DNA of 40,463 bases from an uncultured Sphingorhabdus sp. (lineage in GTDB: Bacteria > Pseudomonadota > Alphaproteobacteria > Sphingomonadales > Sphingomonadaceae), in NCBI RefSeq assembly GCF_937872355.1, contig NZ_CALMSV010000123.1, positions 1 through 40,463 of the forward strand. Reading direction: 5' to 3'. The notes beneath the pieces were generated by a model. It made no database searches. It worked only from the letters and a program-made list of their open reading frames with translations, and was not told the DNA's origin. Both the position numbers and the translations under genes were made by a program. Numbering within the stretch: position 1 is the stretch's first letter; each line of letters begins with the position of its first letter. Shown one piece after another: positions 1 to 40,463 of the stretch.

Positions 1-3000
1 CAATGGTGCTGAGAAAGCGCTTCTCGGCCTTCACGTCTGTCGCAATCGGACGAAACAGCGGCGGCTGCGCCTGGTTGGTCCGGTTGGTGCGGCCAAGGCC
101 TTGGATCGCGGCGTCGGCCTTCCAGCCGGGCTCGAGCAGGTAATGGACGCGCAACCGGCGATTCCGCGCCGACAGTTCGGCATGGTAACTCCGCCCCGTG
201 CCGCCGGCGTCGGAGAACACGAGGATGCGCTTGACGTCATCCATGAAGGCCGAGGTCTCGGCGAGATTGGCCGAGCCTGCGCGGTTTTCGACCACCAGCC
301 GGTCGCCCTTGCGGATGACGCGGCGCGAGCGGCCCGTCACCTCGGCGACCAGTTCGGTGCCGAAGCGCTGGATGACCTGATCCAGTGCCCCAGGTACCGG
401 CGGCAGCGAGGCAAGCTTCTCGATGAGGCGGTCACGGCGTGCGACGGCTTCCCGGCTCTCGACCGGCTGGCCGTCGCGATAGACAGGCCGGGAGCAGAGG
501 TTACCTTCCGAGTCGGTGAAGGGTTCGTAGAGCTGGACCGGGAAGGAGTGGGCGAGGTAGTCGAGGACATACTCGCGCGGGGTGATGTCGACCTGGACGT
601 CGCCCCATTCTTCAGTTGGAATCTCCGCGAGCCGGCGCTCCATCAGCGCTTCGCCCGTCGACACGATCTGGATGACCGCGGCGTGCCCAGCCTCAAGATC
701 GTTCTCGATCGCACGGATCAGTGACGGGGTCTTCATCGAGGTCAGGAGGTGACCGAAGAAGCGCTGCTTCGCGCTTTCGAAGGCGGAGCGTGCCGCAGAT
801 TTGGCCTGCCCGTTCAGCGTTCCCGTTGCGCCGGTGATGTTGGCGGCCCGCATCGCCGCGTCCAGGTTATTATGGATGACGCTGAACGCACCGGCATAGG
901 CGTCGTAAATGCGGACCTGCTCCGGCGTCAGTTGGTGCTCAACAAGCTCGTACTCGACGCCCTCGTAAGAGAGCGAGCGGGCTGCGTAGAGGCCGAGCGC
1001 CTTGAGGTCGCGCGCCAGCACCTCCATGGCCGCGACCCCACCCTCCTCGATCGCTTCGACGAACTCGGCACGGGTGGCGAACGGAAAGTCGGCGCCGCCC
1101 CAAAGGCCGAGGCGTTGGGCATAAGCGAGATTGTGGACCGTGGTTGCGCCCGTCGCCGACACATAGACCACGCGGGCATTCGGCAGCGCGTGCTGGAGCC
1201 TCAAGCCCGCGCGCCCCTGCTGAGAGGCCGCTTGGTCACCACGCTCGCCCTTGCCCCCGATCGCATTCTGCATGGCGTGGCTCTCGTCGAAGACGATCAC
1301 TCCGTCGAAGTCCGAGCCCAACCATTCGACGATCTGCCTGACGCGCGAAAGCTTCTCGCCACGCTCGTCGGTCCGTAGCGTGGCGTAGGTGGTAAATAGG
1401 ACGCCTTCCGCAAGCCGGATCCGGGTGCCCTGGCGAAACCGGGACAAGGGCGTAACGAGCAGGCGCTCCATCCCGAGCGCGGACCAATCGCGCTGCGCGT
1501 CCTCGATCAGCTTGTCGGATTTGCTGACCCAGACGGCACGTCGGCGGCCCTTGAGCCAGTTGTCGAGCAGAATCCCGGCGACCTGCCGGCCCTTGCCCGC
1601 GCCGGTGCCATCGCCCAAGAACCAGCCGCGGCGAAAGCGGACGGCATTCTCTGCGTCATCGCGCGCGGCGGCGATAACATCAAAGGTCGCATCGACCGTC
1701 CAGGAGCCCACGAGAAACTCAGAATGCGCCTCGCCGGCATAGATGACGCTCTCAAGTTGGGCGTCCGACAGAACTCCATCTGCCACCAGACTCGAAGGCA
1801 GGTGCGGACGATAGGATGGTTTCGGTGACGCAACGGACGCCATCGCCGCGGACTGCACGAGCTTGGTCGGGTGTGCGCACGATCCGGGAATACGGATCGA
1901 TTGCAATCCGTATTCCTCGTAAAGGGCATCGGTGAGCCGGGTGCCTTCCGGCGGCGACCATTCGACCGTTTCGTATGTAAGTTCGACGCCTTCTGGCGCG
2001 GCGTCTCTCGAAGAAGACGATGAGCGTGGTGCAACGGCGCCCAGCGATCGCGACATAGCCGGCCGCTCGATAGCGACGATCTCCGGTGATATGGCGACGG
2101 GCAGCCTTGGAGGCACATGCTGGTTCACCAAGTCGAGCAAGGTAGCGACGTCGGCCGCCATGCCTGGCGAAGCCGGAAAAGCCGTCGGATCGGCAGCGGG
2201 CAGCTTGTCGATCACAAGCAGCCGTGTGTCGATTTGTGTTCCGTGCTTCGCGTAGATGGCGCCGTCGATCGCCGCAGAAAACGCTACCTGCCCGCGTTCC
2301 TGGAGCCGCACAAAGGCTTCTCGCCATGCCGGGTTATCCGGTGCGAAGCTGGCGCCAGTGATGGCGACAAGGCGTCCACCGTCGCCAAGACGCGCGAGCG
2401 CTGAAGCGATGTGACGGAGAGCCGCATCCGTCATCCGTCGGTCTACGTTCGTCAATGCCGAGAACGGCGGGTTCATCAGAACGACGCTCGGCACGACACT
2501 CGCGTCGAGGTGGTCGTCGATCTGTGCAGCATCGAACCGCGAGACCTTAACGCCTGCGAAGAGATGATCGAGCAGCGCCGCGCGGGCCTCGGCCAACTCG
2601 TTCAAGACCAGAACGCCGCCGGCGAGCTCGGCAAAGACGGCGAGCAAACCGGTCCCAGCAGAAGGCTCAAGAACGCGATCGGCCGGCGTAATGCCAGCCG
2701 CGGCGCATGCGGCCAGCCCAAGCGGGATCGGCGTCGAGAATTGCTGAAGCGCCTGGCTGTCCTCGGAACGCCGCGTGTGGGTCGGCAGACAGCTAGCGAT
2801 CTTCGTGAGCATCGGCAGCATTGCTGCCGTCGACCCAGCCTTGGCACGCATCGCGGGGCCGAACTTGCGAAGGAACAGAACGGCTGCCGCCTCGCAGACG
2901 TCATAGGCGGTCTTCCAATTCCAAACGCCGGCCGTGTCCGAGGCGCCAAAGGCAGACTCCATGGCGCTACGCAGAACAGCGGCATCGATGCGACGGCCGC

Positions 3001-3112
3001 GTTCGAGCTCGGTCAGGACCTGTCGCGCGGCCCTGACAGCGGCAGAGGTGAGATTTGCAGCGGCACGCATGGAGAGCGGCGTGGCGATGCCGCCGGCAAG
3101 AGATTCGGTCAT
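1..3112 (-). CDS. Strawberry-notch-type helicase with methyltransferase-like domain (3' end outside window)
   Basis: The frame is open for 1037 codons from ATG 3112 to the window edge, so the C-terminus is missing. The N-terminal third has a DNA-methyltransferase-like NPPF motif near residue 213. A superfamily 2 helicase core follows: a Walker A variant GDGTGAGKG near residue 500 and a DESH box near 607. The visible end, around residues 975-1037, holds the FSDAGGTGRSYHA and GLGRTNRTNQ motifs typical of bacterial Strawberry-notch proteins. Such proteins are common on alphaproteobacterial plasmids and conjugative elements, next to ParB-like and ArdC genes as here. Their role is not established; helicase and methylase activity on the element's own DNA is an inference. 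ATG 3112 lacks a clear ribosome binding site, while an out-of-frame ATG at 3152 has a good one. Identity is confident, the start less so. Confidence 0.9.
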   Translation of the reverse strand, partial: MTESLAGGIATPLSMRAAANLTSAAVRAARQVLTELERGRRIDAAVLRSAMESAFGASDTAGVWNWKTAYDVCEAAAVLFLRKFGPAMRAKAGSTAAMLPMLTKIASCLPTHTRRSEDSQALQQFSTPIPLGLAACAAAGITPADRVLEPSAGTGLLAVFAELAGGVLVLNELAEARAALLDHLFAGVKVSRFDAAQIDDHLDASVVPSVVLMNPPFSALTNVDRRMTDAALRHIASALARLGDGGRLVAITGASFAPDNPAWREAFVRLQERGQVAFSAAIDGAIYAKHGTQIDTRLLVIDKLPAADPTAFPASPGMAADVATLLDLVNQHVPPRLPVAISPEIVAIERPAMSRSLGAVAPRSSSSSRDAAPEGVELTYETVEWSPPEGTRLTDALYEEYGLQSIRIPGSCAHPTKLVQSAAMASVASPKPSYRPHLPSSLVADGVLSDAQLESVIYAGEAHSEFLVGSWTVDATFDVIAAARDDAENAVRFRRGWFLGDGTGAGKGRQVAGILLDNWLKGRRRAVWVSKSDKLIEDAQRDWSALGMERLLVTPLSRFRQGTRIRLAEGVLFTTYATLRTDERGEKLSRVRQIVEWLGSDFDGVIVFDESHAMQNAIGGKGERGDQAASQQGRAGLRLQHALPNARVVYVSATGATTVHNLAYAQRLGLWGGADFPFATRAEFVEAIEEGGVAAMEVLARDLKALGLYAARSLSYEGVEYELVEHQLTPEQVRIYDAYAGAFSVIHNNLDAAMRAANITGATGTLNGQAKSAARSAFESAKQRFFGHLLTSMKTPSLIRAIENDLEAGHAAVIQIVSTGEALMERRLAEIPTEEWGDVQVDITPREYVLDYLAHSFPVQLYEPFTDSEGNLCSRPVYRDGQPVESREAVARRDRLIEKLASLPPVPGALDQVIQRFGTELVAEVTGRSRRVIRKGDRLVVENRAGSANLAETSAFMDDVKRILVFSDAGGTGRSYHAELSARNRRLRVHYLLEPGWKADAAIQGLGRTNRTNQAQPPLFRPIATDVKAEKRFLSTI

Positions 3113-3209
3113 GGCAGGAATTCTTTCGGAGAGCAGGAATGGGTCGAACCATCAGGCGCTCTCCTTTGCCCCCGACGGCTCAAACCCTTCCCGGCCCGAC
3201 TCTCACTCT
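3113..3209 (-). promoter_or_regulatory. Leader of the Strawberry-notch gene: AGAGTGAGAG box plus long hairpin
   Basis: Read on the minus strand, an AGAGTGAGAG box (3209-3200) is followed by a long imperfect stem. The arm GGAAGGGTTTGAGCC (3191-3177) pairs with GGTTCGACCCATTCC (3150-3136) with one bulge on each side. Box and stem resemble those ahead of parB and ardC, but the box-to-stem gap is 8 rather than 14 bases and the hairpin sequence differs. The loop carries GGAG (3164-3161) placed 8 bases before an ATG (3152) that is out of frame with the helicase. This is the most divergent of the leader copies. Confidence 0.5.
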
Positions 3210-3298: not shown

Positions 3299-5413
3299 TC
3301 ACTCAGCCGCGTCGAGATGTTGCGGATCTTCGTCGGCGGCGGTCTCCTGATCCTCCTCGTCGGCGAGGAATTCGGGCAGCCGGCCCGCCTCGCTCTCCTG
3401 CTCTGACGCCGCATCGGGATCGAGGAGACGCAACGGCTCCGGCAACCAACCCGAGCCATCCAGAAGTCGTTCAGCCTCCTTGGCCATGTCGGCCTTCTTC
3501 AGATGGTCGATCAGTTGCGCCGACGACTCGCCCTTGGCCTGCCGCACGGCATCCAGAATACGCGGCTTGGTAACCCGGCCGAGATAGTTGTCGACGGTCG
3601 GTCGCCAGCCGGCCTGCACCATGTCGAGCCCGACCGCGCGCGCCAGCACATCGGCCTGGTCGAGACGCGTGCGAACGCCATGGGCGGAGACGCGACCCTG
3701 ATTGTAGCGATTGGCTGGCTCATGGACGGCGTTGACCGCAAACGACGCACAGTGGGCGAACAGCGACGCCTGTGCACCACCATCGAGAGCCGTCAGCGCA
3801 TCCCAGAGATCGTTCTCGCTCTTTGGCAACCGTGCCTTCCAGACCTCATGTCGCGCCTCGACTGCTTTGGCCGAGACGCTTTCCCTCAGCCCCGGAGCTT
3901 GGGCGGGAAAGTTCGGCGTGCGAAGGCTGATCTCAAGACAGCTCCCGGACGATGCGAACCGGTAAAAGGCCGTCAGCACGAAGTTATGCAGAACTGCCTG
4001 GAACGCGACCGCTGGATTTCCCGCCAACGCATCACGCAATGTCAGTGTACGATGCGCCGTCAACTCGATGATGAGACGATCCGGCAAAGGTTTGGTCGCG
4101 TCCTCATCATCCTCCTCGGCATCAGCAGCGCCGCCTGCGACCGCGATGACCGTGCGCTGGACGGAAGGGCCCACTTCAAGACCTTCGGTCGACGACGCAT
4201 CGGCGCCCTGCCCGACATCAGGATCAGTTGCCGGCACCTCGTCCTCCGGCCGGACGTAACCCCGGTCCACGGCGAGGCGTCCTTCGGAGTCGATGCTGAT
4301 GAAGACACCAGCTCGGGCGATCTCCGCCGGTTCGTAAAGCATCGGCCGGTCTTCGAATGCAGCCAGGGCCGACTCGATTTCGCCGAGACGCTGATCGACC
4401 TCGTCGGGCAACTCGTCGGCATCCCGGTAGTCGACTTCCAGCTTGGCTTGCTCGGCGTTCAGCGCATCGATGGTGGCCTGCTCCTCAGGCGAGAGATCGA
4501 CGGGCTTGCCTTCGATTTGTCGTAGGCCTTGAGTGTGACCGTAGGGGAAATCTACGGCGACCGAGATCCACTTCCAGCCTTCGGCAGCAATCGTCTCAGC
4601 TTCGGCCTTGAGCTTCTCGGTTACGAGGCGGTCGAGCAAGACGACGTCCTGAAGCCAGCCGCCGTCGTCGTGCTCGAACAGATCCCGCAGAACGCCGCCA
4701 CCCGCGCTCTGATAGGCATCGAGGCCCACAAATTGGGCCCGGGGATCGGAACCGCGCACGGTGTTCTCCGTGAGCAGCCGGCGGATCTGGTATGGCTCGT
4801 CATAACCGGAGCGGCTGACATTCTCCCAGACTTGCTCCTGGCGGGCGTGATCGGCCGTGACCGAGAACGCCATGAGCTGCTCGAGGGTCATGCCGTCTTC
4901 GGCATAGACCTCATGCAGCTTTGGCGAGACCGACGCCAGGCGCAGGCGCTGCTTGACGATTGCAGGGTTCACGAAATGACGCGCGGCAATGTCTTCCTCG
5001 CTCATGCCGAGATCGCGGAGTGTCTGGAAGGCCCTAAACTGATCAAGCGGATGCAGGCCGACCCGCTCATCGTTCTCCGCCACCGAATCGTCCTCGGCGA
5101 TGCCCCCTTCACGCACAACGCACGGCACCGCCTGCGTCTTTGACATCCGCTTCTGTTTTACCAGGAGCTCGAGAGCGCGATAGCGCCTGCCGCCCGCTGG
5201 CACCTCGAACATGCCGGTCTCGTTGCCATCTGCATCGACGACGGCCCGGACACTCAGACCTTGCAGAAGCGTACGCTGCGCGATGCTCTCGGCTAGCTGC
5301 TCGATCGAGACACCGGCCTTGACGCGGCGAACGTTCGACTGGCCGAGCACGAGCTTGTTGAAGGGAATGTCCCGAGAAGGGGACAGCGTGATCTTTTGTA
5401 CGGCTTTCGTCAT
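3299..5413 (-). CDS. ParB-like N-terminal domain protein of plasmid/ICE type
   Basis: The 704-residue protein opens with a ParB/Spo0J-type domain over about residues 10-130. It includes a GGRRYRALELL box like the one shared by ParB CTPase domains, and then a helix-turn-helix-like stretch. It is much longer than a chromosomal ParB of about 300 residues. The middle and C-terminal parts, rich in Asp and Glu, are typical of the large ParB-like proteins of alphaproteobacterial plasmids and conjugative elements. The likely role is DNA binding in maintenance or regulation of the element; true segregation is unproven, since no ParA gene is in view. The frame extends upstream to 5680, but ATG 5413 is chosen because GGAG stands 7 bases before it and because an earlier start would overlap ardC. 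It sits between the helicase/methylase and ardC, all on the minus strand. Confidence 0.85.
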   Translation of the reverse strand: MTKAVQKITLSPSRDIPFNKLVLGQSNVRRVKAGVSIEQLAESIAQRTLLQGLSVRAVVDADGNETGMFEVPAGGRRYRALELLVKQKRMSKTQAVPCVVREGGIAEDDSVAENDERVGLHPLDQFRAFQTLRDLGMSEEDIAARHFVNPAIVKQRLRLASVSPKLHEVYAEDGMTLEQLMAFSVTADHARQEQVWENVSRSGYDEPYQIRRLLTENTVRGSDPRAQFVGLDAYQSAGGGVLRDLFEHDDGGWLQDVVLLDRLVTEKLKAEAETIAAEGWKWISVAVDFPYGHTQGLRQIEGKPVDLSPEEQATIDALNAEQAKLEVDYRDADELPDEVDQRLGEIESALAAFEDRPMLYEPAEIARAGVFISIDSEGRLAVDRGYVRPEDEVPATDPDVGQGADASSTEGLEVGPSVQRTVIAVAGGAADAEEDDEDATKPLPDRLIIELTAHRTLTLRDALAGNPAVAFQAVLHNFVLTAFYRFASSGSCLEISLRTPNFPAQAPGLRESVSAKAVEARHEVWKARLPKSENDLWDALTALDGGAQASLFAHCASFAVNAVHEPANRYNQGRVSAHGVRTRLDQADVLARAVGLDMVQAGWRPTVDNYLGRVTKPRILDAVRQAKGESSAQLIDHLKKADMAKEAERLLDGSGWLPEPLRLLDPDAASEQESEAGRLPEFLADEEDQETAADEDPQHLDAAE

Positions 5414-5494
5414 TTTGGCTCTCCACGACGGGTGGCCGTGAGACTCTCTCTCGGCTTCCAACCCGTCGCGAACAGCCTCCCCTCCTCTCACTCT
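5414..5494 (-). promoter_or_regulatory. Structured leader of the parB-like gene overlapping its ribosome binding site
   Basis: On the minus strand an AGAGTGAGAG box (5494-5485) is followed after 14 bases by CGCGACGGGT (5470-5461). This pairs over 10 positions, one of them a G-U wobble, with ACCCGTCGTG (5433-5424). Inside the 27-base loop a smaller GCCG/CGGC stem (5455-5452 with 5438-5435) can form. The outer stem ends on the first G of the GGAG ribosome binding site (5424-5421), and the start codon follows 7 bases later. Compared with the ardC leader, the wobble pair has moved to the other side, which is a compensatory change and suggests a folded RNA. Confidence 0.65.
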
Positions 5495-5510
5495 CGCGCG
5501 AGGCCAGGCA

Positions 5511-6473
5511 TCACGCCGTCTCGTGATCGGCGACAGCCGAATCCAGCGATGCGGGCTCAATGGACCCGGGAACGAAACCGAGCAAATAGTCCGCGGCCTT
5601 GCTCGCCTGCGAGGCGGCCCGCACGATGGCGCGATTGTCTTCACGCAGGACTTCGAGCCAGGAGCCGATATAGTCGGCATGGCGCACGGTGGGGACGATC
5701 CCTAGCGACGCGCAGCTGAACGCGGAACTCAATTCGGCGACCAGCTCTTCGAAGGCATATTTCTTGGTACCGTAGGATCCGCTCTGGTCGCGATTGAGAC
5801 GCGACGGGTGCCCAGTCGCATGACCGAGTTCATGCAAGGCCGTACGGTGCCAGTTGATGGGTTCGAAATAGGCCTGCGGCGGCGGGACCTGAACATAGTC
5901 TTCGGCTGTTGCATAGAATGCGCGATCTCCACCGATCCGAAATGGAATTCCGCTGGCCGTGATCAGGGCATCGACCGTCGGTTCGATGAGGCCGGCCGGC
6001 GGCGGCGGCGCAGCGGTGGCAATGTCGTCGGGCAGTTGCTCGCACTGATCGGTGTTGAAAACGGTAAATCGCTTGAGGAACGGGATCGCCTGCGCGTCTT
6101 CGCCGGTCTCGGCGGCGCGGCGCTTTTCATCATTCGGCACGAAACGATCCGCGTAGACGACGGTAGTCCCGCGCTCTCCCTTGCGAACGTGGCCGCCAAG
6201 AGAGAGTGCCTGGCGGAAAGTGAGCCAACTTTGACCGGTAAATCCGCGTTCGATCACGACTCCCCAGAGGATGAGGATGTTCACACCACTGTATTGCCGG
6301 TTGGTCGACGCATTTTTCGGCATGGCCAGCGGCGCTTTCGCCGCGGCAGTACCCCAGGGCTGAACCCAGGGGACGCGTCCGGCCTCAAGCTCGGCGATGA
6401 TCTTGTCGGTGATTTCGTTGTAGAGGTTCGCCCGGTCCTGGCCGGCGCGCGCGCAAGCATTAGGGTTTGACAT
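5511..6473 (-). CDS. ardC: ArdC-type antirestriction protein (ssDNA-binding plus metallopeptidase domain)
   Basis: The 320-residue protein has the two-domain ArdC layout: an N-terminal single-stranded DNA-binding domain (about residues 10-140) and a C-terminal zincin-like domain. The metal site is clear: HELGH at residues 214-218 and EELVAEL at 242-248, the usual third-ligand region. ArdC proteins protect incoming conjugative DNA from restriction in the recipient cell. The position next to parB-like and helicase/methylase genes fits an establishment region of a plasmid or conjugative element. ATG 6473 is preceded 7 bases upstream by GGAG, which sits at the foot of a predicted hairpin leader. 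Length and motifs are normal for the family. Confidence 0.93.
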   Translation of the reverse strand: MSNPNACARAGQDRANLYNEITDKIIAELEAGRVPWVQPWGTAAAKAPLAMPKNASTNRQYSGVNILILWGVVIERGFTGQSWLTFRQALSLGGHVRKGERGTTVVYADRFVPNDEKRRAAETGEDAQAIPFLKRFTVFNTDQCEQLPDDIATAAPPPPAGLIEPTVDALITASGIPFRIGGDRAFYATAEDYVQVPPPQAYFEPINWHRTALHELGHATGHPSRLNRDQSGSYGTKKYAFEELVAELSSAFSCASLGIVPTVRHADYIGSWLEVLREDNRAIVRAASQASKAADYLLGFVPGSIEPASLDSAVADHETA

Positions 6474-6554
6474 CGCGGGTCTCCGCGACGGGCACCGCGA
6501 GCCTCTCTCGCAGATTGTAACCCGTCACGGAAAACCAGCCTGCACTCTTACTCT
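6474..6554 (-). promoter_or_regulatory. Structured leader of ardC overlapping its ribosome binding site
   Basis: On the minus strand a one-mismatch copy of the box (AGAGTAAGAG, 6554-6545) is followed after 14 bases by CCGTGACGGG (6530-6521). This pairs over all 10 positions with CCCGTCGCGG (6492-6483), with one G-U pair. Within the 28-base loop a perfect 5-bp hairpin GCGAG/CTCGC (6511-6507 with 6501-6497) can form. The stem covers the first two bases of the GGAG ribosome binding site (6484-6481). The architecture and the 7-base spacing to the start codon match the parB leader exactly. Confidence 0.68.
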
Positions 6555-6560
6555 CAGCTT

Positions 6561-7044
6561 CTTGCCTTAGGCCGCAGGCCTGATCCGGCGTGCGCCAGGG
6601 GCGCATCGCCCCAAGAGAAATGGCACCCGCAGGAGCGTGAGCATAGCGACGCCGAAGGCGGCACGCGGGACCGAGTGCAGCGACGAGACCGGTTAAAAGG
6701 GCACCCGGGAACGGGGCAGTGATAACGATCGCCGCAGGCGAGCCCCTTTTCCGAGTGCCCCCGGCGAGGAGCACCAAAGCTCTGGCGCGAGGGATCGAAG
6801 CCGCAGGCCGAGACGCGGCGCGGCTCGGTTCACGAGAGCCCGGTGCGGCCCTGGCCGCACGCGCACAACCACTAAAAGACTTGAGCGAAAGTGATGCTGG
6901 CAATCCTGCGAGAACAGCCTGGCAATTTCACAGTGGTCTCAGAACGGGCGAAAACCTTGTCCTCTGCTGACTGAGAATCCCAGCCTTGTGTTAGCAGCCG
7001 GAACAAACGGCGGACCACTAGATTCGTGTATTCGGAGTTATTCA
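6561..7044. other. GC-rich intergenic region with many short inverted repeats
   Basis: About 480 bases lie between ardC and the next gene. The open frames here (for example 6719-6970 plus and 6460-6903 minus) look like chance products of GC-rich DNA and carry no recognisable motif. The region is full of small self-complementary patches built on GCCGCAGGC-like words, such as AGGCCGCAGGCCT near 6568 and GGGGCGCATCGCCCC near 6599. A larger pair of complementary blocks lies near 6690-6765 (GGGCACCC against GAGTGCCC). This suggests a folded untranslated leader or a structured backbone element ahead of ardC. No promoter could be assigned with confidence. Confidence 0.4.
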
Positions 7045-7537: not shown

Positions 7538-7564
7538 CGGTGCCTCCTGTTGGGACATCGAAGC

Positions 7565-7589
7565 AACGCGACAGGGATTCGCAGGTTCC
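7565..7589 (-). promoter_or_regulatory. Predicted EcfG (general stress sigma factor) promoter for the DUF3606 gene
   Basis: On the minus strand GGAAC (7589-7585) and CGTT (7568-7565) are separated by exactly 16 bases. This is the consensus of alphaproteobacterial EcfG promoters (GGAAC-N16/17-CGTT). Transcription would start near 7557, about 20 bases ahead of the DUF3606 start codon. Both half-sites are perfect matches. Confidence 0.7.
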
Positions 7590-7641
7590 GGAACGATTCG
7601 AACTGTGCCAATTTGAATCGGCTGTAGCGTGGAGTTCTTCA

Positions 7642-8562
7642 GTGGCGTTTCAGCGTAACAAGCCGGCGGCTATCGGCGTCAAGGCGCCTTTCCCCGCCTT
7701 CATCGAACCGGCCCTGGCATCCTCGACAGAGAAAGTGCCGTCGGGAGAGCGCTGGATCCACGAAATCAAGTTCGACGGCTACCGTGTTCAGGTCCATCTG
7801 GCCAACGAGACGGCGAAGATCTCCACCCGGCGCGGCCACGATTGGACGCACCGCTTCAAGAAGGTCGCTCATGACGCCTGGCGGATCAAGGCGAACTCTG
7901 CGGTGGTGGACGGCGAGATCGTGGTGCCAGCTGCCGATGGCACGACCGACTTCTCGGTCCTGCAGAACGAGCTCAAGGGTAAGTCGAGGAGCATCGTGCT
8001 CGTGGCGTTCGATCTGCTCTATCTGAACGGCCGAGATATCCGGAAGCTACCGCTTTTTCAGCGCAAGGCCGAACTCAAGAAGATCCTGACCGGCACCGAC
8101 ATCCAGTTCAGCGAAAGCTTCGCGATAGACGGCCGCGAGATGTTTGCGCACGCCTGCAAGCTTGGCCTCGAAGGTGTCGTCTCGAAGGTCCGGGACGGCG
8201 CCTATCCGGCCGGACGCACGAATGACTGGGTCAAGAAGACCTGCGTGCAGCGTGAGACCCTGACTATTGCGGGTTTCGCGCTCGATGGAACGAAGTGGGA
8301 CGGCATCTACGTCGGCCGGCGTAAGGGCGACGATCTAATATACGCCGGGAAGGTGGACCATGGATTCGACAAGGCATCAGCCGCCGACCTTCAGAAGCGT
8401 CTGAAGCCGCTGATCCGCAAGACGCAGCCTTATGCAAAGCGGATTGCGCACAAAGGAATCTGGGTCGAGCCCAAGCTGCTGGCCGAGATAGAGTACCGTG
8501 CAAAATCAGCGGAGGGAAAAGTCCGTCATCCCTTCTTCAGGGGGCTTCGGGAGGATCTGTAA
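7642..8562 (+). CDS. ATP-dependent DNA ligase, stand-alone LigC/LigD-ligase type (first copy)
   Basis: The 306-residue protein is a minimal ATP-dependent DNA ligase: adenylation domain followed by an OB-fold domain. Motif I is EIKFDGYR, with the nucleotidyl-accepting lysine at about residue 43. Further motifs are VVDGEIV, EGVVSK and DWVKK. It matches the ligase part of LigD but has no polymerase or phosphoesterase domain, so it is LigC-like. It would seal breaks in non-homologous end joining with the Ku encoded at 12.2-13.1 kb. The start is GTG 7642, with GGAG 7 bases before it; the open frame upstream of that point does not resemble the family. It overlaps the following 54-codon gene by one base. 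Confidence 0.9.
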   Translation: MAFQRNKPAAIGVKAPFPAFIEPALASSTEKVPSGERWIHEIKFDGYRVQVHLANETAKISTRRGHDWTHRFKKVAHDAWRIKANSAVVDGEIVVPAADGTTDFSVLQNELKGKSRSIVLVAFDLLYLNGRDIRKLPLFQRKAELKKILTGTDIQFSESFAIDGREMFAHACKLGLEGVVSKVRDGAYPAGRTNDWVKKTCVQRETLTIAGFALDGTKWDGIYVGRRKGDDLIYAGKVDHGFDKASAADLQKRLKPLIRKTQPYAKRIAHKGIWVEPKLLAEIEYRAKSAEGKVRHPFFRGLREDL

Positions 8563-12207: not shown

Positions 12208-13140
12208 CTAAGCCGACTTCCGCTGCGGCTTGGCCGCCGGCTTTTTCGCCGCGGCCTCCTTCGCCGGCTTCTTGCCTGCGATCGGCATCAGCATTTCCTT
12301 CTGCCCGGCCGCCGCCTTGCGCGGCTTTTTTCCTGATTTCTTGGGTGCCTCTGTCGCTGAGGCGCCCTCTCTTCCGATGCTCTTTCGCAGCGCGTCGATC
12401 AGGTCCACCACGTTCTCGCCGCGGGGACGCGCTTTCGCGGTGATGGGTTTGCCGGCGCGCTTCTGATTGATCAGTTCGATGAGGGCGGTTTCGTATTGGT
12501 CTTCGAACTTGTCCGGCTCGAAATGGCCCGCCTTCTGATTGACGATGTGCTTGGCGAGATCAAGCATGTCCTTGGTGACTTTGACATCCTGAATGTCGTC
12601 GAAATACTCATCAGCTGAACGGACTTCGTAAGGATAGCGCAGTAGCGTTCCCATCAGGCCCTTGTCCAACGGCTCCAGCGCGATGATGTGCTCGCGATTG
12701 GTCAGCACCACACGGCCGATCGCGACCTTGTTCATCTCGCGGATGGTTTCCCGAATAACGGCGAAAGCATCGTGCCCGACTTTACCGTCGGGACGCAGAT
12801 AGTAGGGGCGAATGAGATATCGCGGATCGATCTCGCTGCGGTCGACGAACTCGTCGATTTCGATCGTTCGCGTTGATTCCAGTGCGACGTTCTCTAGCTC
12901 CTCCTTCGTCACCTCGATGAAGGTGTCCGTGTCGACCTTGTAGCCTTTGACGATGTCCTCGTTGTCGACCTCCTCGCCGGTATCGGCATCCACCTTAGCG
13001 TACTTGATCCGATGGCCGGTCTTTCGATTCAGCTGGTTGAACGAGACCTTTTCGGATTCCGACGTGGCCGGATAGAGCGCAACCGGACAGGTGACGAGGG
13101 AAAGACGCAGGAAGCCTTTCCAGTTGGCGCGGGGGGCCAT
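12208..13140 (-). CDS. ku: Ku protein of non-homologous end joining
   Basis: The 310-residue protein starts MAPRANWKGFLRLSLVTCPV and continues with FNQLNRKTGHRIKY, both hallmarks of bacterial Ku. The Ku core spans about residues 5-235. The C-terminal tail (about 240-310) is rich in Lys, Ala and Pro, like the extended tails known to aid DNA binding and threading. Bacterial Ku forms a homodimer that binds double-strand break ends and recruits a ligase, here plausibly one of the two LigC-like enzymes. ATG 13140 has GGAG 9 bases upstream; a second in-frame ATG lies at 13155. The upstream gap is shared with a divergent operon carrying a LexA box. Confidence 0.95.
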   Translation of the reverse strand: MAPRANWKGFLRLSLVTCPVALYPATSESEKVSFNQLNRKTGHRIKYAKVDADTGEEVDNEDIVKGYKVDTDTFIEVTKEELENVALESTRTIEIDEFVDRSEIDPRYLIRPYYLRPDGKVGHDAFAVIRETIREMNKVAIGRVVLTNREHIIALEPLDKGLMGTLLRYPYEVRSADEYFDDIQDVKVTKDMLDLAKHIVNQKAGHFEPDKFEDQYETALIELINQKRAGKPITAKARPRGENVVDLIDALRKSIGREGASATEAPKKSGKKPRKAAAGQKEMLMPIAGKKPAKEAAAKKPAAKPQRKSA

Positions 13141-13260
13141 CGCGGGGAACTCCATTACTGATGCCGGATTAAAGACGAACGACCGGGCTTGGTTCCGACA
13201 TCGCGACCCGCCCCACAGCGGGATTTTTCTCATCGGCCTGCCTGGCCGGACTCGACATTT

Positions 13261-13275
13261 GTTCTTGTTATGTTC
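13261..13275. promoter_or_regulatory. Predicted LexA (SOS) box
   Basis: GTTC (13261-13264) and GTTC (13272-13275) are separated by exactly 7 bases, the alphaproteobacterial LexA consensus GTTC-N7-GTTC. The site ends 10 bases before the ATG at 13286 and lies in the gap between ku and the divergent SRAP/dinB operon. It most probably represses the rightward operon until DNA damage; an effect on ku, about 120 bases away, is possible. The gene content (SRAP, dinB) supports SOS control. Confidence 0.7.
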
Positions 13276-13285
13276 TAATTCGGGC

Positions 13286-13681
13286 ATGACCGACCGACCC
13301 GCGAGCTGGCGCATGCCGACCCCGAAACAGATGGAAAAATTGGCCGCTGAAGCCGACCGCAGACGAGCGCCGCCCGCTGCGGGTCCAGATGCCCCCCTCC
13401 CGGCCGAATATTGGGAATCGGTCCTGAAAGACGCACGCGCCGGCACGACCGGGGCTCAGATGCGGCAGCGACGTCTTTCCGAGATTCAGCGTCACGTGCT
13501 GCGCGTCTCCTGCCGCCGCTGCGAGCGGACCGTGGAAATCCAGACCGCTGATGCCGTTCGACTGTATGGCGCCAACGCGCTCTGGAAGGACGTCGCGCAG
13601 CGGCTGCTCGACAATACCTGCCGGCAGCGCACCGGCAGGCATGAAGAAGACGGGTGCTGGCCAGCGTTCGAGACGCCGTAG
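13286..13681 (+). CDS. Cysteine-containing protein of an SOS-type operon, 131 aa, unknown function
   Basis: The N-terminal half is polar and Pro/Ala-rich. The C-terminal half carries CRRC at about residues 73-76 and later cysteines (TCRQRTGRHEEDGCW), suggesting a zinc-bound fold. No enzyme motif is visible. Similar proteins occur in rhizobia near repair genes. ATG 13286 is chosen because it follows the LexA box directly and the family-like sequence begins there; the ribosome binding site is weak. It is the first of four rightward genes ending with SRAP and the dinB remnant. Confidence 0.65.
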   Translation: MTDRPASWRMPTPKQMEKLAAEADRRRAPPAAGPDAPLPAEYWESVLKDARAGTTGAQMRQRRLSEIQRHVLRVSCRRCERTVEIQTADAVRLYGANALWKDVAQRLLDNTCRQRTGRHEEDGCWPAFETP

Positions 13682-16174: not shown

Positions 16175-19100
16175 ATGGATTACGGCGCTATGGCGCGAGC
16201 TACCATGCAAGGCAAAGCGACGCTCGACGCACGATTCAAGTTTGCTGATACCGCGTTTTCGAGCGGCACCGAAGGTTGGAATTCTCAACTTCGTTTTGCC
16301 ACCGGCATCGCCGACGGCGAGGACTATCTTCTTCGTCTGTTCAAGAAGACCGGAACCCCGCTGGACGAGGACCTGAAGCGGCTCATCACGCACGGCCTCA
16401 GGCGTGTCCGGCGTGTTCTGTCGTCACGCCGTGCGCGCCAGTTATTGGTCGAGGTTCTTGAGATCGTCGAGGACCAGGAAGAGATCGGTATCTTAATGGT
16501 TGATCCTGGCAGTCCGATCTGCGGGTCATTGCACAGGGTTCGAGCGCGAGAAGGCCGGCTGCTTACGACGACCGGCCGCAAGATGTTTTGGCGCAATATC
16601 TTGCGCGTAGCTGAAGGACTTGCACTTTGTCATGATGCGGGCATCGTGCACGGCGCTGTCAGCGAACATACGATCTTTTCGCATAGCGATGAAAAAGAGG
16701 ATTTCCGACTCGGCGGCTACGAAGCGTGCGTACACATTGCCGACGGCGATGTGGGCGGCGCGGGACATCTGCTGCGGCCCTCCGGCACCGTCTCGTTTCG
16801 CCGGGACTGGAGTGATCTTGGGCAGGCAGCGTCGCGGATCCTCGGCCTGACCGAGGACGGCGGCGGTCCTTCCCTGCTGTCGATCGAGCGACGCATGCTT
16901 AATCGTCTTGCCGATCCGCCACGCTACCAGCTTTTCGACGGAAGTATCGTGCTAAACGAGATCGCCGAGGTCGTGGCCGATCTTGACCGGTCGGGGTCAA
17001 GCGGCGAAGGCGAGCTAATTCTCTACCCTTCCACCCAGGTTACCCAAAGCGACCTTGCATCGCTTACATCGGGCACCATCCCGGCTGACGATAGGGATGC
17101 GGTCCTCCGTTTTGTCGAAGAGGATCTCAGCGGACCAACGGTACGCACTGTTGTCGTAGATGAGGCCTTCGTGCGTATCGTCACCGACCTTGCCGCGTAT
17201 GGCGTGAAAGTCATCGATGACTATGTCGGCATGATCGAGAACGCCAACAAGAGGCGGCCTGACGACTACATCTATGATGCCGTCGAGGTTCGCCACCGGA
17301 TTCATCTTGCGCGAACTCGGAGAAGCGCCGAAGAGCGAGTACGCAGGCTTGGCCCTGGCGCCAAACCGTGGATTGACGCGAGTGTCACAACAGGAGTGAG
17401 CCGATCAGTCGAAGAGATTCCCACTTGGTACGCCCTCATTCTTCTCGAAGCCTTTACTTGGCTGCGGGAGCAATTCCGAATCTATCCCGTCGAAGTGCTT
17501 CACCCGCCGTCCGGCGGGGATTCAGATTTGGCCTGGATCGCCTCCCGCGAAGATCCCGACCGGGACATGCGACGCAAGCTGATGGGACTGCGCCCGGCAT
17601 ACGACGCCTTGGCGCGCGAATTGAAGTACGACGACGGCAAACCAAATTGGACTCTTTCACGCAGCGACGCGCTCGCCGGCGATCGGGAGCGATTTCCGGA
17701 ACTCAGTTATGAGGGAACGGGCGGTGTCGTCGACGGCCGCCTACCGTTCACGTTCGCGACAAGCGAAGCTGTTGTACCGGGGCAGCTTCTTTTTCTTCGT
17801 CCTCGAAGAGATGGTGGATTTGAACGCGCAATTCGCCGCCGCCTTCAAAATATTGTGGCGGCCCGGACGAATATTGAACTCTTGAGAGCGATTGACGATC
17901 CGGCGCAGGTCGCGCTGGACGAAGTATTACGTGATATTGCGACCCCGAATGCGGTGCCGCCGGACGAGATGGACGGTTCGAAAAAGGTGGCATGGGACGC
18001 AATCGTATCAGGCAAGTCCATCAATGTCGTTGTTGGCCCTCCTGGCGTCGGCAAGACGTTCCTAATTTCGAATCTTGTCAAAAGCATTCTGGACAAAACA
18101 CCGGACGCAAGGCTTCTAGTGTCGGCGCAAAACCACGAGACCTTGATTCAAATGGAGGACGAACTCAAGGCGACACTGGCGAGCGGCACGAAGATCGTCG
18201 TTCGTGTCGAGCGGACACGATCGACCGATGAAGTCAGCTCCTTGCGTGCGAGCTCCGTTGATCTTCTTAGGTCCGTTTCGACGGTCGACCACGCCGCTGA
18301 AAGCATGATGGTCAACCAACGCTATCAAATCAAGCAGGCGCTCCGGCCCGTTGATGCGTCGGAAGCGACGGTTGCGGAACGCGTATTTCGCGATACCGAC
18401 AATCTGCTGCTGCGCTCTTCCGATGTCACGCTTGCCACGACATCGTCGCACATCATCGAGGAGATGATTGCCGATGGCGATCAATTCGACTGGGTCATCG
18501 TCGAAGAAGCGGCCCGCGCCAACGGTGCGGAACTGATCGGCGCGCTATTGCTGGGCAACAGAAGAATCATGGTTGGCGATCACAACCAACTCTCTCCATT
18601 CGATGCCGCCCAGCGGCAACAATTCTACGATCCCGAGCGCGCAGTTGATCTGCTGCGGGACGCGAAGGAGCGGCTTGAAACCATCTCCGATCTACCGCCG
18701 GAAGTTACTGAGGCGCTTGATACAGTTAAGTCGAGCGAACATCTGATGAGGGAGGCTCTCGCAACAGCGGCGCGTCTTGAAGAACCGTTTCGATCAATAG
18801 CTGAGCGCGAAATTGAGCGCGAAAAGGACACGGGGCGTCCGAGCACGATCGTCAACACGCTGCTGGAACAGAGCCGCATGCACCCCGCCATCGGCGATCT
18901 CGTCTCGAATACTTTTTATGACAGAAAGCTCGCTCCCTCCGACCGCGTCAAGCGTCGCACGCTAACGGTCACGTCCACGGTCGCGTACCTCACCTCTCCA
19001 ATCGTTCTTCTCGATTTTCCGCCCCTCAGCATGTCAAAACGGCGACATTTCGAACACAAAGTGGAGCGATCATTCCGCAACGAGCTTGAGGCGCAGGCCT

Positions 19101-19648
19101 TGATAGCGGCCTTGAAAGGGTTGCGGCCGATAGTTGGCGCGGACGGCCGCCGACCGACCCTCGTGATCATCTCGCCCTACGCGGCGCAGGTGAGATGGTT
19201 CAAGCGCTTACTGCGCGGCCAAGTCAGGAAAGACAAGACCTTGTTCGGCTTCGCGAGCCCGCGCAGTAATGGTGAGTTCGTCTTTACCAGCGATAGCTTC
19301 CAAGGTGGCGAAGCCGATGTCGTGGCCGCCAGCCTTACGCGCAACAATGTCATGGTGGGATCGCGCGCGCTCGGATTCGTCAAAAGCCCACAGCGCATGA
19401 ATGTGCTGCTCAGCCGCGCCAAGCAAAAGCTGATTCTTGCCACAAGCCAGCGCTTCATTCGCGAAGTGGTCGAAGGAATCGATCCGGATGCAAAAAAGGA
19501 CGATCTTGAATTCCTACGAAAGATGCTGAAGGAGCTCGCGACCCTCGCCGGGACCGATTACGAGCTCGTCAGGAAGGATGCTCCTAGCATTAAGGTGAAA
19601 GGCGCATCCATCGTCGCGATCGACGAGAACGGGAGGCTTCCGGCGTGA
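16175..19648 (+). CDS. mkoA: Type I Mokosh MkoA-like protein: kinase-like domain plus SF1 (COG1112-type) helicase
   Basis: The 1157-residue protein has a protein-kinase-like N-terminal domain (about residues 30-230) and a superfamily 1B helicase of the Upf1/Dna2 type. Helicase motifs are Walker A GPPGVGKT near 620, VIVEEAARA (Walker B region) near 775, GDHNQLSPF near 800, DSFQGGEADVV near 1042 and NVLLSRAK near 1075. In the kinase part the usual HRD loop reads HGAVSEHTI and the DFG site reads LGGYEA, so catalysis is doubtful. This layout followed by a phospholipase-D gene matches the published type I Mokosh anti-phage system. ATG 16175 has no spaced ribosome binding site; ATG 16190, with GGA 10 bases upstream, is an alternative. 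The stop overlaps the next start codon. Confidence 0.85.
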   Translation: MDYGAMARATMQGKATLDARFKFADTAFSSGTEGWNSQLRFATGIADGEDYLLRLFKKTGTPLDEDLKRLITHGLRRVRRVLSSRRARQLLVEVLEIVEDQEEIGILMVDPGSPICGSLHRVRAREGRLLTTTGRKMFWRNILRVAEGLALCHDAGIVHGAVSEHTIFSHSDEKEDFRLGGYEACVHIADGDVGGAGHLLRPSGTVSFRRDWSDLGQAASRILGLTEDGGGPSLLSIERRMLNRLADPPRYQLFDGSIVLNEIAEVVADLDRSGSSGEGELILYPSTQVTQSDLASLTSGTIPADDRDAVLRFVEEDLSGPTVRTVVVDEAFVRIVTDLAAYGVKVIDDYVGMIENANKRRPDDYIYDAVEVRHRIHLARTRRSAEERVRRLGPGAKPWIDASVTTGVSRSVEEIPTWYALILLEAFTWLREQFRIYPVEVLHPPSGGDSDLAWIASREDPDRDMRRKLMGLRPAYDALARELKYDDGKPNWTLSRSDALAGDRERFPELSYEGTGGVVDGRLPFTFATSEAVVPGQLLFLRPRRDGGFERAIRRRLQNIVAARTNIELLRAIDDPAQVALDEVLRDIATPNAVPPDEMDGSKKVAWDAIVSGKSINVVVGPPGVGKTFLISNLVKSILDKTPDARLLVSAQNHETLIQMEDELKATLASGTKIVVRVERTRSTDEVSSLRASSVDLLRSVSTVDHAAESMMVNQRYQIKQALRPVDASEATVAERVFRDTDNLLLRSSDVTLATTSSHIIEEMIADGDQFDWVIVEEAARANGAELIGALLLGNRRIMVGDHNQLSPFDAAQRQQFYDPERAVDLLRDAKERLETISDLPPEVTEALDTVKSSEHLMREALATAARLEEPFRSIAEREIEREKDTGRPSTIVNTLLEQSRMHPAIGDLVSNTFYDRKLAPSDRVKRRTLTVTSTVAYLTSPIVLLDFPPLSMSKRRHFEHKVERSFRNELEAQALIAALKGLRPIVGADGRRPTLVIISPYAAQVRWFKRLLRGQVRKDKTLFGFASPRSNGEFVFTSDSFQGGEADVVAASLTRNNVMVGSRALGFVKSPQRMNVLLSRAKQKLILATSQRFIREVVEGIDPDAKKDDLEFLRKMLKELATLAGTDYELVRKDAPSIKVKGASIVAIDENGRLPA

Positions 19649-24600: not shown

Positions 24601-25010
24601 CGCGCGCCCGGATCAATGTCGGCCTCAACCGCATAGCTGGAGATGATCGTCTGGCAAAATGCGTGAATGGTGGCGGTTGTCAGTTCGTCGAGCTTCGCCG
24701 CTGCACCGGAAAGTGCGCGTCGTTGGTCCACGTTTAGTCCGTTGGGCAGAGCAAGCCGCAAAGGTTGAGGCACACGTCCCGCAAGCAGCTCCTCGACATA
24801 GCGTTGCACGCGCGTCGCCAGCCCGCTCGCGGCAAGCTCTGTGAAAGTGATCGCGGCGATCGCGCCGGGCTCGGTGCCACGCGCGAGCAGCATGGTCAGG
24901 CGTCCGGCCATTAGCGCCGTTTTGCCGGTGCCGGCGGCGGCCTCGACGAGCAACGTGGCGTCGAGATCAGTCAGGATGCGAAGCCGTGCGGGATCGTCGG
25001 CGAGTGTCAT
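21696..25010 (-). CDS. AddA/UvrD-like helicase-nuclease, last gene of the SIR2-HerA operon
   Basis: The 1104-residue protein is a superfamily 1A helicase with a C-terminal RecB-type nuclease. Walker A AAGTGKT is at residues 25-31, the DEFQDTDP box near 381, and HSAKGLEWPVV near 760. The nuclease shows GRIDAIAV, LDWKSD near 1053 and a QLSDYL helix, a complete PD-(D/E)xK set. Length and order resemble alphaproteobacterial AddA. The chromosomal addAB locus normally lies in another context, so this is probably a defence-specialised paralogue. ATG 25010 overlaps the stop of the AddB-like gene (ATGA); a GTG at 25022 is a weaker option. It would unwind and degrade DNA together with its AddB-like partner. 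Confidence 0.88.
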   Translation of the reverse strand: MTLADDPARLRILTDLDATLLVEAAAGTGKTALMAGRLTMLLARGTEPGAIAAITFTELAASGLATRVQRYVEELLAGRVPQPLRLALPNGLNVDQRRALSGAAAKLDELTTATIHAFCQTIISSYAVEADIDPGARILDAVQAAAAFDSVFEQWLKRRLNAPERPGDAIATLSRDDPRRIVDTLQELARFRLRYRGARALPAELGGRPDIDLVDAVADFRRWISSQPVEPKTLELVGELETLANFYAGSFDPPPDFATLWRLAHPPQLACMRRHSFDLLTPRRKSAWERVAGKERGALLNEEATACFERVNRCYRTVLGRFATALVAQLAAELDEVLDDYAAFKRAAAVLDFDDLLEKARALVRQHDDVRRALGERYRHIFVDEFQDTDPVQTEILFGIAGKDRAGRWQDSVLRAGALFMVGDPKQAIYRFRGADIGSYSQARAAVERQLPENIVQVTANFRSRPDILRHINRCFARPLSGEGQPGYVPLTSTLGDPDHDLPCAARITVDVPPDSRPAQIRDAEAEAVADLCTRLIGNLPIRDEDGAIVPLTAGGIALLAPTGAELWRYERALEQRGLPIASQAGKSLFRRQEVQDLLALARVLADAGDTLAFGALLRGPLVGLTEEELLDITVGLPPHLDRAEAPQRFSVLTDVDHVAHPLARRTLAILQDLRKRVRATTPALLLAEAIERLAVRATLAAREGDRSARAAANLEAFLERARPYGVRGLRKFVRDLAREWRDGVPHNEGRVDAEGDAIEIITIHSAKGLEWPVVIPINTGTLLRSREAFVYRADDETLHWLIGDVVPPELLRALESEDDSLARERERLWYVACTRARELLIVPELPQAEQRSWARIVDLAHRDLPQLVLSHLTPVARVTDVAPPNTQTPELFGAERAAIAAAAMPLQWLRPSDHDPDRAPRGEAIAMEPGEAPETELPVGAGRVRGLILHKLMEEMLTGELAEEMPVVAARARVLMTQLIIDADNGAKLPDPEEIAVTVARTLALPEIAALRPSLAPEWPIYAMLSASPAATALAGRIDAIAVQDGQPAVVLDWKSDVAPSEQDRRDHAAQLSDYLRATGAPRGAVVYMTDGVIRWVTTRTPR

Positions 25011-40290: not shown

Positions 40291-40463
40291 TGTCCTGAAA
40301 GGCGGAAAGATGCCAATCCTGAGAAGCTGAAACCCGGCTTTGCGCTTCTGAGGGGAACGCCATCCCCTGCGGCCGGCCTTCGTCTCAGCCGCCCCCTTTT
40401 GCGGGGAGCCCCCGCAACGCCCCCTTCAGAGTGAGAGTGCGGACGGATTTTCCGTGACGGGTT
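40291..40463 (+). promoter_or_regulatory. GC-rich gap and first half of another structured leader, pointing out of the window
   Basis: After the GIY-YIG gene the DNA holds short inverted repeats, AGAAGC/GCTTCT (near 40321-40349) and AGGGGA/TCCCCT (40351-40356 with 40363-40368), which could help end transcription. At 40428-40437 lies AGAGTGAGAG, followed after exactly 14 bases by CCGTGACGGG (40452-40461). The latter is identical to the stem arm ahead of ardC. The second arm and the gene it serves lie beyond the window, on the plus strand, so another backbone gene is expected there. Confidence 0.65.

What the first reader, a model, noticed from the sequence alone, without database searches (positions are those of the whole stretch)
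5414..6554. A recurring hairpin leader that overlaps ribosome binding sites of mobile-element genes
Seen in sequence: ahead of parB (5414-5494) and ardC (6474-6554), an AGAGTGAGAG box, exactly 14 bases, a 10-bp stem and a 27-28 base loop holding a second small stem. The stem foot lies on the GGAG site, with 7 bases to the start codon. The arms differ by compensating changes (CGCGACGGG with CCCGTCGTG against CGTGACGGG with CCCGTCGCG). Another half copy at the right edge keeps the 14-base spacing, and a divergent one precedes the helicase/methylase. Inference: an RNA element coordinating translation of establishment genes when the element enters or is stressed. I cannot name an RNA family for it.
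Basis: partly seen in the sequence, partly recalled or inferred. Interest (0 to 1): 0.82.

Follow-up and report, generated by a model that had tools for sequence, protein, structure and literature searches.

The report
Shared RNA hairpin on plasmid genes
Several core genes of mobile DNA elements in one large class of bacteria carry the same folded RNA leader that hides the ribosome's landing site, an unnamed RNA family that probably keeps these genes' translation in check and under one shared control.

Summary
The two hairpin leaders are real. A covariance model from relatives finds the parB copy, not in the model, at 70 bits; both copies fold better than all 200 shuffles. The 'divergent' copy is a second architecture (3110-3209), found at 66 bits by a model made without it.

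Relatives covary in both stems. Sense-strand G-U pairs outnumber A-C mismatches 308:32, so the folded molecule is the sense RNA rather than a DNA operator or template-strand promoter. The Shine-Dalgarno GGAG lies in the outer stem. Of protein-anchored ParB loci, 22 of 22 at 50% identity or more carry the leader, 1 of 8 below; ArdC, DUF932 and others carry it too. Rfam has no match; radC RNA is the nearest kind, a different family.

Best reading: a per-cistron translational brake with one recognition code (AGAGnnAGAG box, AGAGG loop), read by an unknown factor. CsrA, TRAP and ProQ are missing from 18, 22 and 22 of 22 leader genomes tested.

The parts
6471..6554 (-). ardC leader, whole element from box to ATG (R1 type)
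   Evidence: R1 84 bits (its own copy is in the model); fold -39.8 kcal/mol, z -3.8
6545..6554 (-). AGAGnnAGAG box of the ardC leader (AGAGTAAGAG)
   Evidence: a box with up to one mismatch in 142 of 156 relaxed pattern matches
6520..6532 (-). outer stem, 5' arm (ardC)
   Evidence: pair list; outer pairs counted
6495..6513 (-). inner hairpin with apical AGAGG loop (6502-6506)
   Evidence: fold; inner helix 8 of 8 pairs with two-sided changes in relatives
6481..6493 (-). outer stem, 3' arm, holding the GGAG Shine-Dalgarno at 6481-6484
   Evidence: SD mostly paired in relatives
5511..6473 (-). ardC (ArdcN + MPTase-PolyVal)
   Evidence: Pfam
5411..5494 (-). parB leader, whole element from box to ATG (R1 type)
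   Evidence: R1 70.2 bits, E 8.8e-17, copy not in the model; z -5.4
5485..5494 (-). AGAGTGAGAG box of the parB leader, 16 nt after the ardC stop codon
   Evidence: row L128
5461..5473 (-). outer stem, 5' arm (parB)
5435..5455 (-). inner hairpin (parB)
5421..5433 (-). outer stem, 3' arm, holding GGAG at 5421-5424
3299..5413 (-). parB-like gene (704 aa; ParB_N and HTH_ParB just below Pfam cut-offs)
3110..3209 (-). second architecture (R2 type): box, GGGAAGGG stem, GAGCC helix, GCTCTCC, ahead of the helicase/methylase gene
   Evidence: R2, built without this copy, 66.1 bits, E 9.9e-14; alignment with 18 relatives; z -3.7
2..3112 (-). methyltransferase/helicase gene, runs off the contig
   Evidence: open ORF; homologue annotated 'bifunctional class I SAM-dependent methyltransferase/DEAD/DEAH box helicase' in pMLb (matched as L164)
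40428..40463 (+). 5' half of a further R1-type leader (box, spacer, CGTGACGGGTT), cut by the contig end
   Evidence: (16.1 bits, E 0.022)

Best explanation
A family of cis-acting RNA leaders, one per cistron, on backbone genes of alphaproteobacterial plasmids and related mobile elements. In the mRNA the outer stem takes in the Shine-Dalgarno GGAG, so that by default ribosomes load poorly (supported by covariation and predicted folding; no translation was measured). A conserved AGAGnnAGAG box about 82 nt before the start codon and an exposed AGAGG apical loop are, in the ardC/parB type, sequence-conserved parts that the stems do not need. I infer that one trans-acting factor, a protein or small RNA not yet known, reads these AGAG motifs and opens or locks the hairpin, so that ArdC, ParB, DUF932, the helicase and others, which can lie on one transcript, are switched together at translation. 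That the switch serves arrival in a new cell is the least certain step.
For: RNA on the sense strand: A1 (77 rows) inner helix 8 of 8 pairs with two-sided changes; 84 two-sided cells over the whole structure against 29.0 in shuffles, 0 of 500 as high; the inner stem was not fixed by the search pattern. A3 (57 rows: R1 hits lacking the exact pattern, plus the window parB; six rows are also in A1): 5 of 13 outer and 7 of 8 inner pairs two-sided, 66 cells against 21.9. G-U 308 against A-C 32 of 1614 cells, 216 against 28 of 1191. Sense fold more stable than antisense in 126 of 126, 56 of 57 and 19 of 19 of the R2 type. SD occlusion: GGAG in the outer stem; SD unpaired median 0.04 in 34 leader genes against 0.25 in 25 leaderless homologues, p 0.013; over 124 leaders mean unpaired SD 0.18, apical loop 0.88 (114 of them), box 0.48. 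Per cistron on one mRNA: the box follows the previous gene's stop by 40 nt or less in 11 of 73 neighbour pairs, and abuts or overlaps it in three, two of them near-identical loci. Gene association: ParB 22 of 22 at 50% identity or more, 1 of 8 below; ArdC 11 of 13 at 60% or more, 0 of 17 at 51% or less. No exact box within 260 nt before 25 of the 26 leaderless homologues (L227 not checked). Two architectures share box and purine loop.
Against: No transcript, start site, translation or binding data. No sigma-70-like site was found on the minus strand of 5380-7000, so that the element is transcribed is inferred. The SD effect is modest: start and SD were picked by a rule of mine, some leaderless homologues also have buried SDs, and single leaders are predicted open (L192, 0.99). 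No regulator gene was seen near the leaders (clusters read by eye, no family search). The box is no more unpaired in predictions than the coding region (0.48 each) and partly pairs with CUCUC in the R2 type. Covariation counts are not corrected for phylogeny, and A3 was gathered with a model that contains the structure. For the R2 type support is weaker: two-sided pairs 5 against 3.4, 54 of 500 shuffles as high, though the covariation score is above all 500. Of 57 plasmid records with the ardC leader region 30 are typed non-mobilizable, and whether chromosomal copies lie in mobile elements was judged only by gene content.
Confidence: 0.55

Rival explanations
1. Passive fold-back insulator: the hairpin blocks translation of read-through mRNA from neighbouring promoters, while a native promoter inside the element starts mRNA beyond the 5' arm, so that the SD is free. 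The box would then be a DNA element of that promoter.
For: The box-to-stem spacing is narrow (128 of 142 within 27-29 nt from box start to GACGGG), as in a promoter; no signal upstream of the box is shared by the three gene groups, though the ArdC group has some conservation of its own; pLS20 EGeRS1-B, ahead of ardC, blocks expression from an upstream promoter and shows no promoter of its own (PMC8708921 section 13, read). Fold-back inhibition of transposase mRNAs is recalled.
Against: GTGACGGGTT is no -10 element that I know (recalled); no sigma-70-like site on this strand in 5380-7000; box-to-GACGGG distance differs by about 9 nt between the two architectures (by eye); it does not explain the conserved AGAGG loop.
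Confidence: 0.2
2. Intercistronic processing or stability hairpin (an RNase III or RNase E site) that sets mRNA decay rather than ribosome access.
For: About 21 base pairs with an internal loop, placed between cistrons.
Against: The stem is in register with SD and start codon (GGAG to start 7-9 nt in 140 of 142), and the box and loop sequences are conserved beyond what a nuclease that reads duplex needs (the latter is recalled knowledge).
Confidence: 0.12
3. Single-stranded DNA hairpin acting during transfer, as an Frpo-type promoter or like the STAXI motif.
For: The genes are of the kind found in leading regions (ArdC, ParB, SSB nearby in pEJ01); with DNA parameters too the sense strand folds better, 125 of 126.
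Against: An Frpo promoter folds the template strand (inferred from PMC11541004 passages), where sense G-U becomes A-C: observed 308 to 32 for the sense strand. No -10/-35 found. The register with SD and ATG would be unexplained.
Confidence: 0.05
4. Double-stranded DNA operator (inverted repeat bound by a repressor).
For: Inverted repeat with narrow spacing to the box; the box could be DNA.
Against: The conserved U-G pairs (67 of 77 and 68 of 77 rows) are mismatches in a DNA palindrome; the inner arms vary as long as they pair.
Confidence: 0.04

Closest known systems
radC RNA motif (Rfam RF01754)
   Same: Cis-regulatory RNA present in several copies in one genome (4 on one contig of G260); recalled to precede genes whose products act on DNA, including anti-restriction proteins.
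   Different: 149 nt, several hairpins, other sequence; no leader locus in the 22 genomes reaches its cut-off, and G260 carries both families at different places (leaders on C1, radC RNAs on C4).
EGeRS1 of plasmid pLS20 (PMC8708921)
   Same: Repeated, strongly structured region ahead of ardC and other establishment operons, just before the ribosome binding site; blocks expression from an upstream promoter.
   Different: About 600 bp, plasmid of Bacillus, large branched structure; its authors have no evidence whether RNA or ssDNA is the acting form; no sequence comparison was made here.
STAXI motif (Rfam RF01728)
   Same: Near anti-restriction, SSB and integrase genes (PMC2864571 passages).
   Different: Tandem pseudoknots; no Rfam match here.
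Frpo / ssi single-stranded DNA promoters
   Same: Hairpins ahead of leading-region genes, including ssb.
   Different: They act as DNA and carry -10/-35 boxes (PMC11541004 passages).
ISPpu9 transposase leader (PMC8450116, abstract)
   Same: Mobile-element mRNA whose 5' UTR structure likely hides the RBS and is opened in trans, there probably by an antisense sRNA.
   Different: One gene of one insertion sequence; no shared box across different genes is mentioned in the abstract.

Membership tests
radC RNA (RF01754) | Match to the family covariance model above 40 bits | tested here: not met
   No match in the window at gathering or in 5380-6640 at E up to 10; in 22 leader genomes only four G260 C4 copies pass, none at a leader
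radC RNA (RF01754) | Lies before genes that act on DNA | tested here: met
   ArdC, ParB, helicase/methylase downstream; the defining feature itself is recalled
STAXI (RF01728) | Tandem pseudoknots; match to the Rfam model | tested here: not met
   No such match
Frpo-type ssDNA promoter | Fold on the template strand | tested here: not met
   Sense-strand wobble bias and lower sense energy in 126 of 126
Frpo-type ssDNA promoter | -35/-10 in the hairpin | tested here: inconclusive
   No sigma-70-like site on the minus strand of 5380-7000, but a simple consensus scan is weak evidence of absence
CsrA/RsmA-regulated leader | Host encodes CsrA | tested here: not met
   CsrA in 4 of 22 leader genomes tested, absent from the window's own
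TRAP-regulated leader | Host encodes TRAP | tested here: not met
   0 of 22
FinO/ProQ-dependent regulation | Host encodes a ProQ/FinO domain | tested here: not met
   0 of 22
EGeRS1 (pLS20) | Blocks expression from an upstream promoter | not testable with these tools
   Needs reporter fusions

The most novel reading that the evidence does not exclude
A translational regulon written in RNA: one mobile-element lineage marks each of its establishment and maintenance cistrons with the same AGAG-box and SD-hiding hairpin, in two architectures, and a dedicated, so far unknown RNA-binding factor reads the code to time their translation after transfer. It would be zygotic induction at the level of translation.
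Probability: 0.3. Interest if true: 0.85.

Novelty: new variant of a known kind. Interest (0 to 1): 0.66.

Why it matters
The leader is in 30 of 385 sampled genomes of the class at E 0.01, 27 of them convincing, and 21 of these 27 hold two or more copies; it has no Rfam entry. It shows that distinct backbone genes of plasmids share what looks like a translational control element. That offers a direct handle on how such elements time anti-restriction, partition and DNA-processing functions, and a bait for finding the factor that reads it. It would also annotate unexplained 5' regions in rhizobial, rhodobacterial and sphingomonad plasmids (records).

Tried and rejected
Rfam: gathering search of the window 0 matches; permissive searches gave only hits that I take as chance (mir-611, 20 of 90 bits; one search gave two tRNAs and three sub-threshold hits). 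A recalled lead, the DUF3085 RNA motif, found no paper. radC RNA was a serious candidate from Table 1 of PMC2864571 and was rejected by its model. CsrA, TRAP, ProQ as readers: run on 22 of the 27 convincing leader genomes. A mini-ORF GUG-ACG-GGU-UGA in the 5' arm was considered and rejected, since the GUG becomes GCG or CAC in several copies while pairing is kept. Neighbour families within 93 loci: no RNA-binding candidate by eye among the 28 clusters printed (no family search run on them). The box on the opposite strand, as a sign of an antisense partner: 0, 0 and 2 places in three plasmid stretches, neither of the two near a leader gene. Upstream promoter consensus: none common to the groups. 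Viral contigs: 6 pattern hits, 2 real by box and gene. The weakest three genomes (25-28 bits, L160-L162) do not look like leaders. Seven of the 118 stretches are from other phyla by title and all seven lack the box.

Rows dropped before counts: one search kept 136 of 156 regex matches (20 without a box or without a start with more than 40 aa); one search dropped 10 with a far box, then reduced 126 to 77 by redundancy. The regex allowed one mismatch per arm, so A1 already holds a few rows without the exact pattern. For A3: 81 pattern-negative hits with a frame and over 78 nt, 80 after removing one false hit, 64 after redundancy; I left out 8 of the 64 as too divergent (RadC-like, 172-, 150- and 128-aa gene leaders and one without a box) and added the window parB copy, giving 57. 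These 8 would probably lower the pairing figures. For the R2 type, one search gave 19 non-redundant stretches; I dropped one (L005) and trimmed five to the box, giving the 18 of A5. In some searches the structure string pairs column 22 with 73, not 72 as in the pair list; that pair fails in 15 of 18 rows and is noise. Loci overlap in part (same genomes in two collections), so the 226 hits are not independent. Searches gave loci for 30 of 39 and 30 of 53 match rows; the rest were not tested for the leader.

Papers: search listings; PMC8708921 passages and section 13; PMC11541004 passages; PMC2864571 passages, among them most of Table 1; PMC8450116 abstract and outline. That I know no printed description rests and on Rfam; the library lacks most subscription papers, the 2017 survey of 224 RNAs (recalled) was not held, and Rhizobiales-1 of the 2010 survey has no Rfam number in its table and was not tested.

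Full report
WHAT IS THERE. On the minus strand the window has, in order, ardC (5511-6473), parB (3299-5413) and a methyltransferase/helicase gene that runs off the contig (2-3112). Each starts behind a structured leader. The ardC and parB leaders share one plan: an AGAGnnAGAG box, 14-15 nt, an outer stem around GACGGG/CCCGTC, an inner hairpin, GGAG in the foot of the 3' arm, 7 nt, ATG. They fold to -39.8 and -40.2 kcal/mol, better than all 200 shuffles each. The helicase leader (3110-3209) has the same box but another arrangement. A 5' half of a further copy is cut by the right contig end (40428-40463).

Box, spacing and loop lengths are off by one base in places, and the two copies differ by one-sided wobble changes, not compensation. 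The box alone is not significant.

RELATIVES. By title seven are from other phyla, and these lack the box; most of the rest name Alphaproteobacteria, a few only 'Proteobacteria' or 'Bacterium'. Of 156 relaxed matches in the loci then held, 142 have the box with up to one mismatch, and its distance to GACGGG is 27-29 nt in 128 of 142. A distant BLAST finds the ardC leader region in 57 plasmid records: 22 typed conjugative, 5 mobilizable, 30 non-mobilizable. Model R1 from 77 rows finds six full copies in the window's own genome, the two of the window included, and a weak seventh at E 0.5. It matches in 30 of 385 genomes of the class; three of these at 25-28 bits are probably false. In a draw of 299 genomes from the phylum 25 match, all of the same class or the window's own family; how many of the 299 lie outside the class was not shown. 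Two of six viral-contig pattern hits are real.

RNA, NOT DNA. In A1 all eight inner pairs show two-sided changes, but only one of 13 outer pairs; whole-structure two-sided cells 84 against 29.0 in shuffles. The outer arms were part of the search pattern, so I looked at hits of the model that lack the exact pattern (A3): five of 13 outer pairs have two-sided changes, 66 cells against 21.9 over the whole structure. A3 is not fully independent: it was gathered with R1, and six of its 57 rows are also in A1. Shuffles do not correct for relatedness; slid structures, which keep it, reach at most 27 two-sided cells in A3 and 41 in A1. G-U outnumbers A-C 308:32 and 216:28, and the sense strand folds better than the antisense in 126 of 126 and 56 of 57. 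Two U-G pairs are conserved as wobble in 67 and 68 of 77 rows. This fits an RNA of the coding strand. It argues against a duplex operator and against an Frpo-type promoter, whose folded strand is the template.

SECOND ARCHITECTURE. Of 34 helicase-gene starts found by protein similarity, 31 have an exact box within 130 nt upstream. There it is typically followed closely by GCCGGGACGGGTTTGAG and, before the start, by GCTCTCC and a GAGG site; a pattern for this gave 22 distinct stretches. Part of the box pairs with CTCTC. Model R2, built from 18 relatives without the window, finds window 3110-3209 at 66.1 bits and matches in 15 of the 22 R1-bearing genomes that I gave it. Its covariation is weaker.

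GENES. Of 226 model hits, which are in part redundant, 212 have a frame over 40 aa that starts at or within 12 nt of the model's end: 94 in the ParB cluster, 64 ArdC, 32 DUF932-like, 12 of an unknown family (159-185 aa where whole), and ten others. Pfam was run on the window's ArdC and ParB and on three members of the other families, where the DUF932 match is just below its cut-off and the other two have none; pEJ01's record calls the first 'DUF932 domain-containing protein'. Two of the others I read as RadC-like from their letters, without a search. Anchored on proteins instead of on the leader, 22 of 22 ParB loci of 50% identity or more carry it, 1 of 8 below; ArdC 11 of 13 at 60% or more, 0 of 17 at 51% or less. 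No exact box lies before 25 of the 26 leaderless homologues, the 26th not checked. Annotated plasmids show the same order, ArdC-ParB-helicase-toprim in pMLb, and a DUF932 gene with RadC and SSB nearby in pEJ01. In these two and a third stretch the exact box on the coding strand occurs only before such genes.

MECHANISM. Supported: the GGAG is part of the conserved outer stem, and predicted SD access is lower than in leaderless homologues (0.04 against 0.25 median, p 0.013). Shown: leaders can sit right between cistrons, with 16 nt from the ardC stop to the parB box in the window, and box and stop codon touching in L069, L153 and L156. So each cistron of a likely common mRNA has its own brake. 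Inferred: the AGAG box and the AGAGG loop (0.88 unpaired) are read by a shared factor. Known readers of such motifs are not general candidates: CsrA in 4, TRAP in 0, ProQ in 0 of 22 leader genomes. Not shown: transcription start, expression, trigger. The main rival is a passive insulator against read-through with an internal promoter, for which pLS20 EGeRS1-B is a precedent for the blocking, though not for the promoter.

KNOWN KINDS. The nearest kind is the radC RNA, listed as probably cis-regulatory in Proteobacteria (PMC2864571 Table 1; its gene context is recalled). Its model finds four strong copies in G260, none at that genome's leaders, and the sequences and structures differ. STAXI and Frpo differ as tabulated. 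I found no printed description in the searches named under Tried and rejected. I therefore call it a new RNA family and a new variant of a known kind.

Noticed in passing
window 16175-21384 (+): A 1157-aa AAA_11/AAA_12 helicase and a 579-aa PLD protein matching PADLOC MkoA (E 1.6e-214) and MkoB (E 6.1e-90): a Mokosh-like defence pair (the system's name is recalled).
   Followed up: partly
window 27658-30982 (-): HerA (E printed as 0) and SIR2 (E 1.1e-228) by PADLOC: a SIR2-HerA defence pair, next to UvrD-helicase and PDDEXK proteins at 21696-27661.
   Followed up: partly
window 31001-32603 (-) and 34016-35128 (-): AbiEii/AbiEi pair and a TIR-domain protein: the middle of the window looks like a defence island between leader-bearing mobile-element genes.
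   Followed up: partly
window 7540-8562 (+) and 12208-13446 (-): ATP-dependent DNA ligase and Ku, an end-joining pair; a DNA ligase also lies near the leader genes in pMLb.
   Followed up: no
window 40340-40427 (+); also upstream of ardC in L008, L014, L021, L032, L038, L039, L058, L061: In one ArdC lineage about 110 nt before the box hold further GC-rich inverted repeats (such as GGGGAAAGCCTTCCCC and GCGGGGAGACCCCGC) that vary but seem to stay complementary (by eye): perhaps a longer multi-hairpin leader.
   Followed up: no
G260 contig C4 37277-77169 (L256-L258): Four Rfam radC RNAs on one contig of a genome that also carries the leader family elsewhere.
   Followed up: partly
L069 3719-4271, L153, L156: A 120-128-aa gene with a diverged leader lies just before parB, and its stop codon touches the parB box; the L153 member has no Pfam match.
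   Followed up: no
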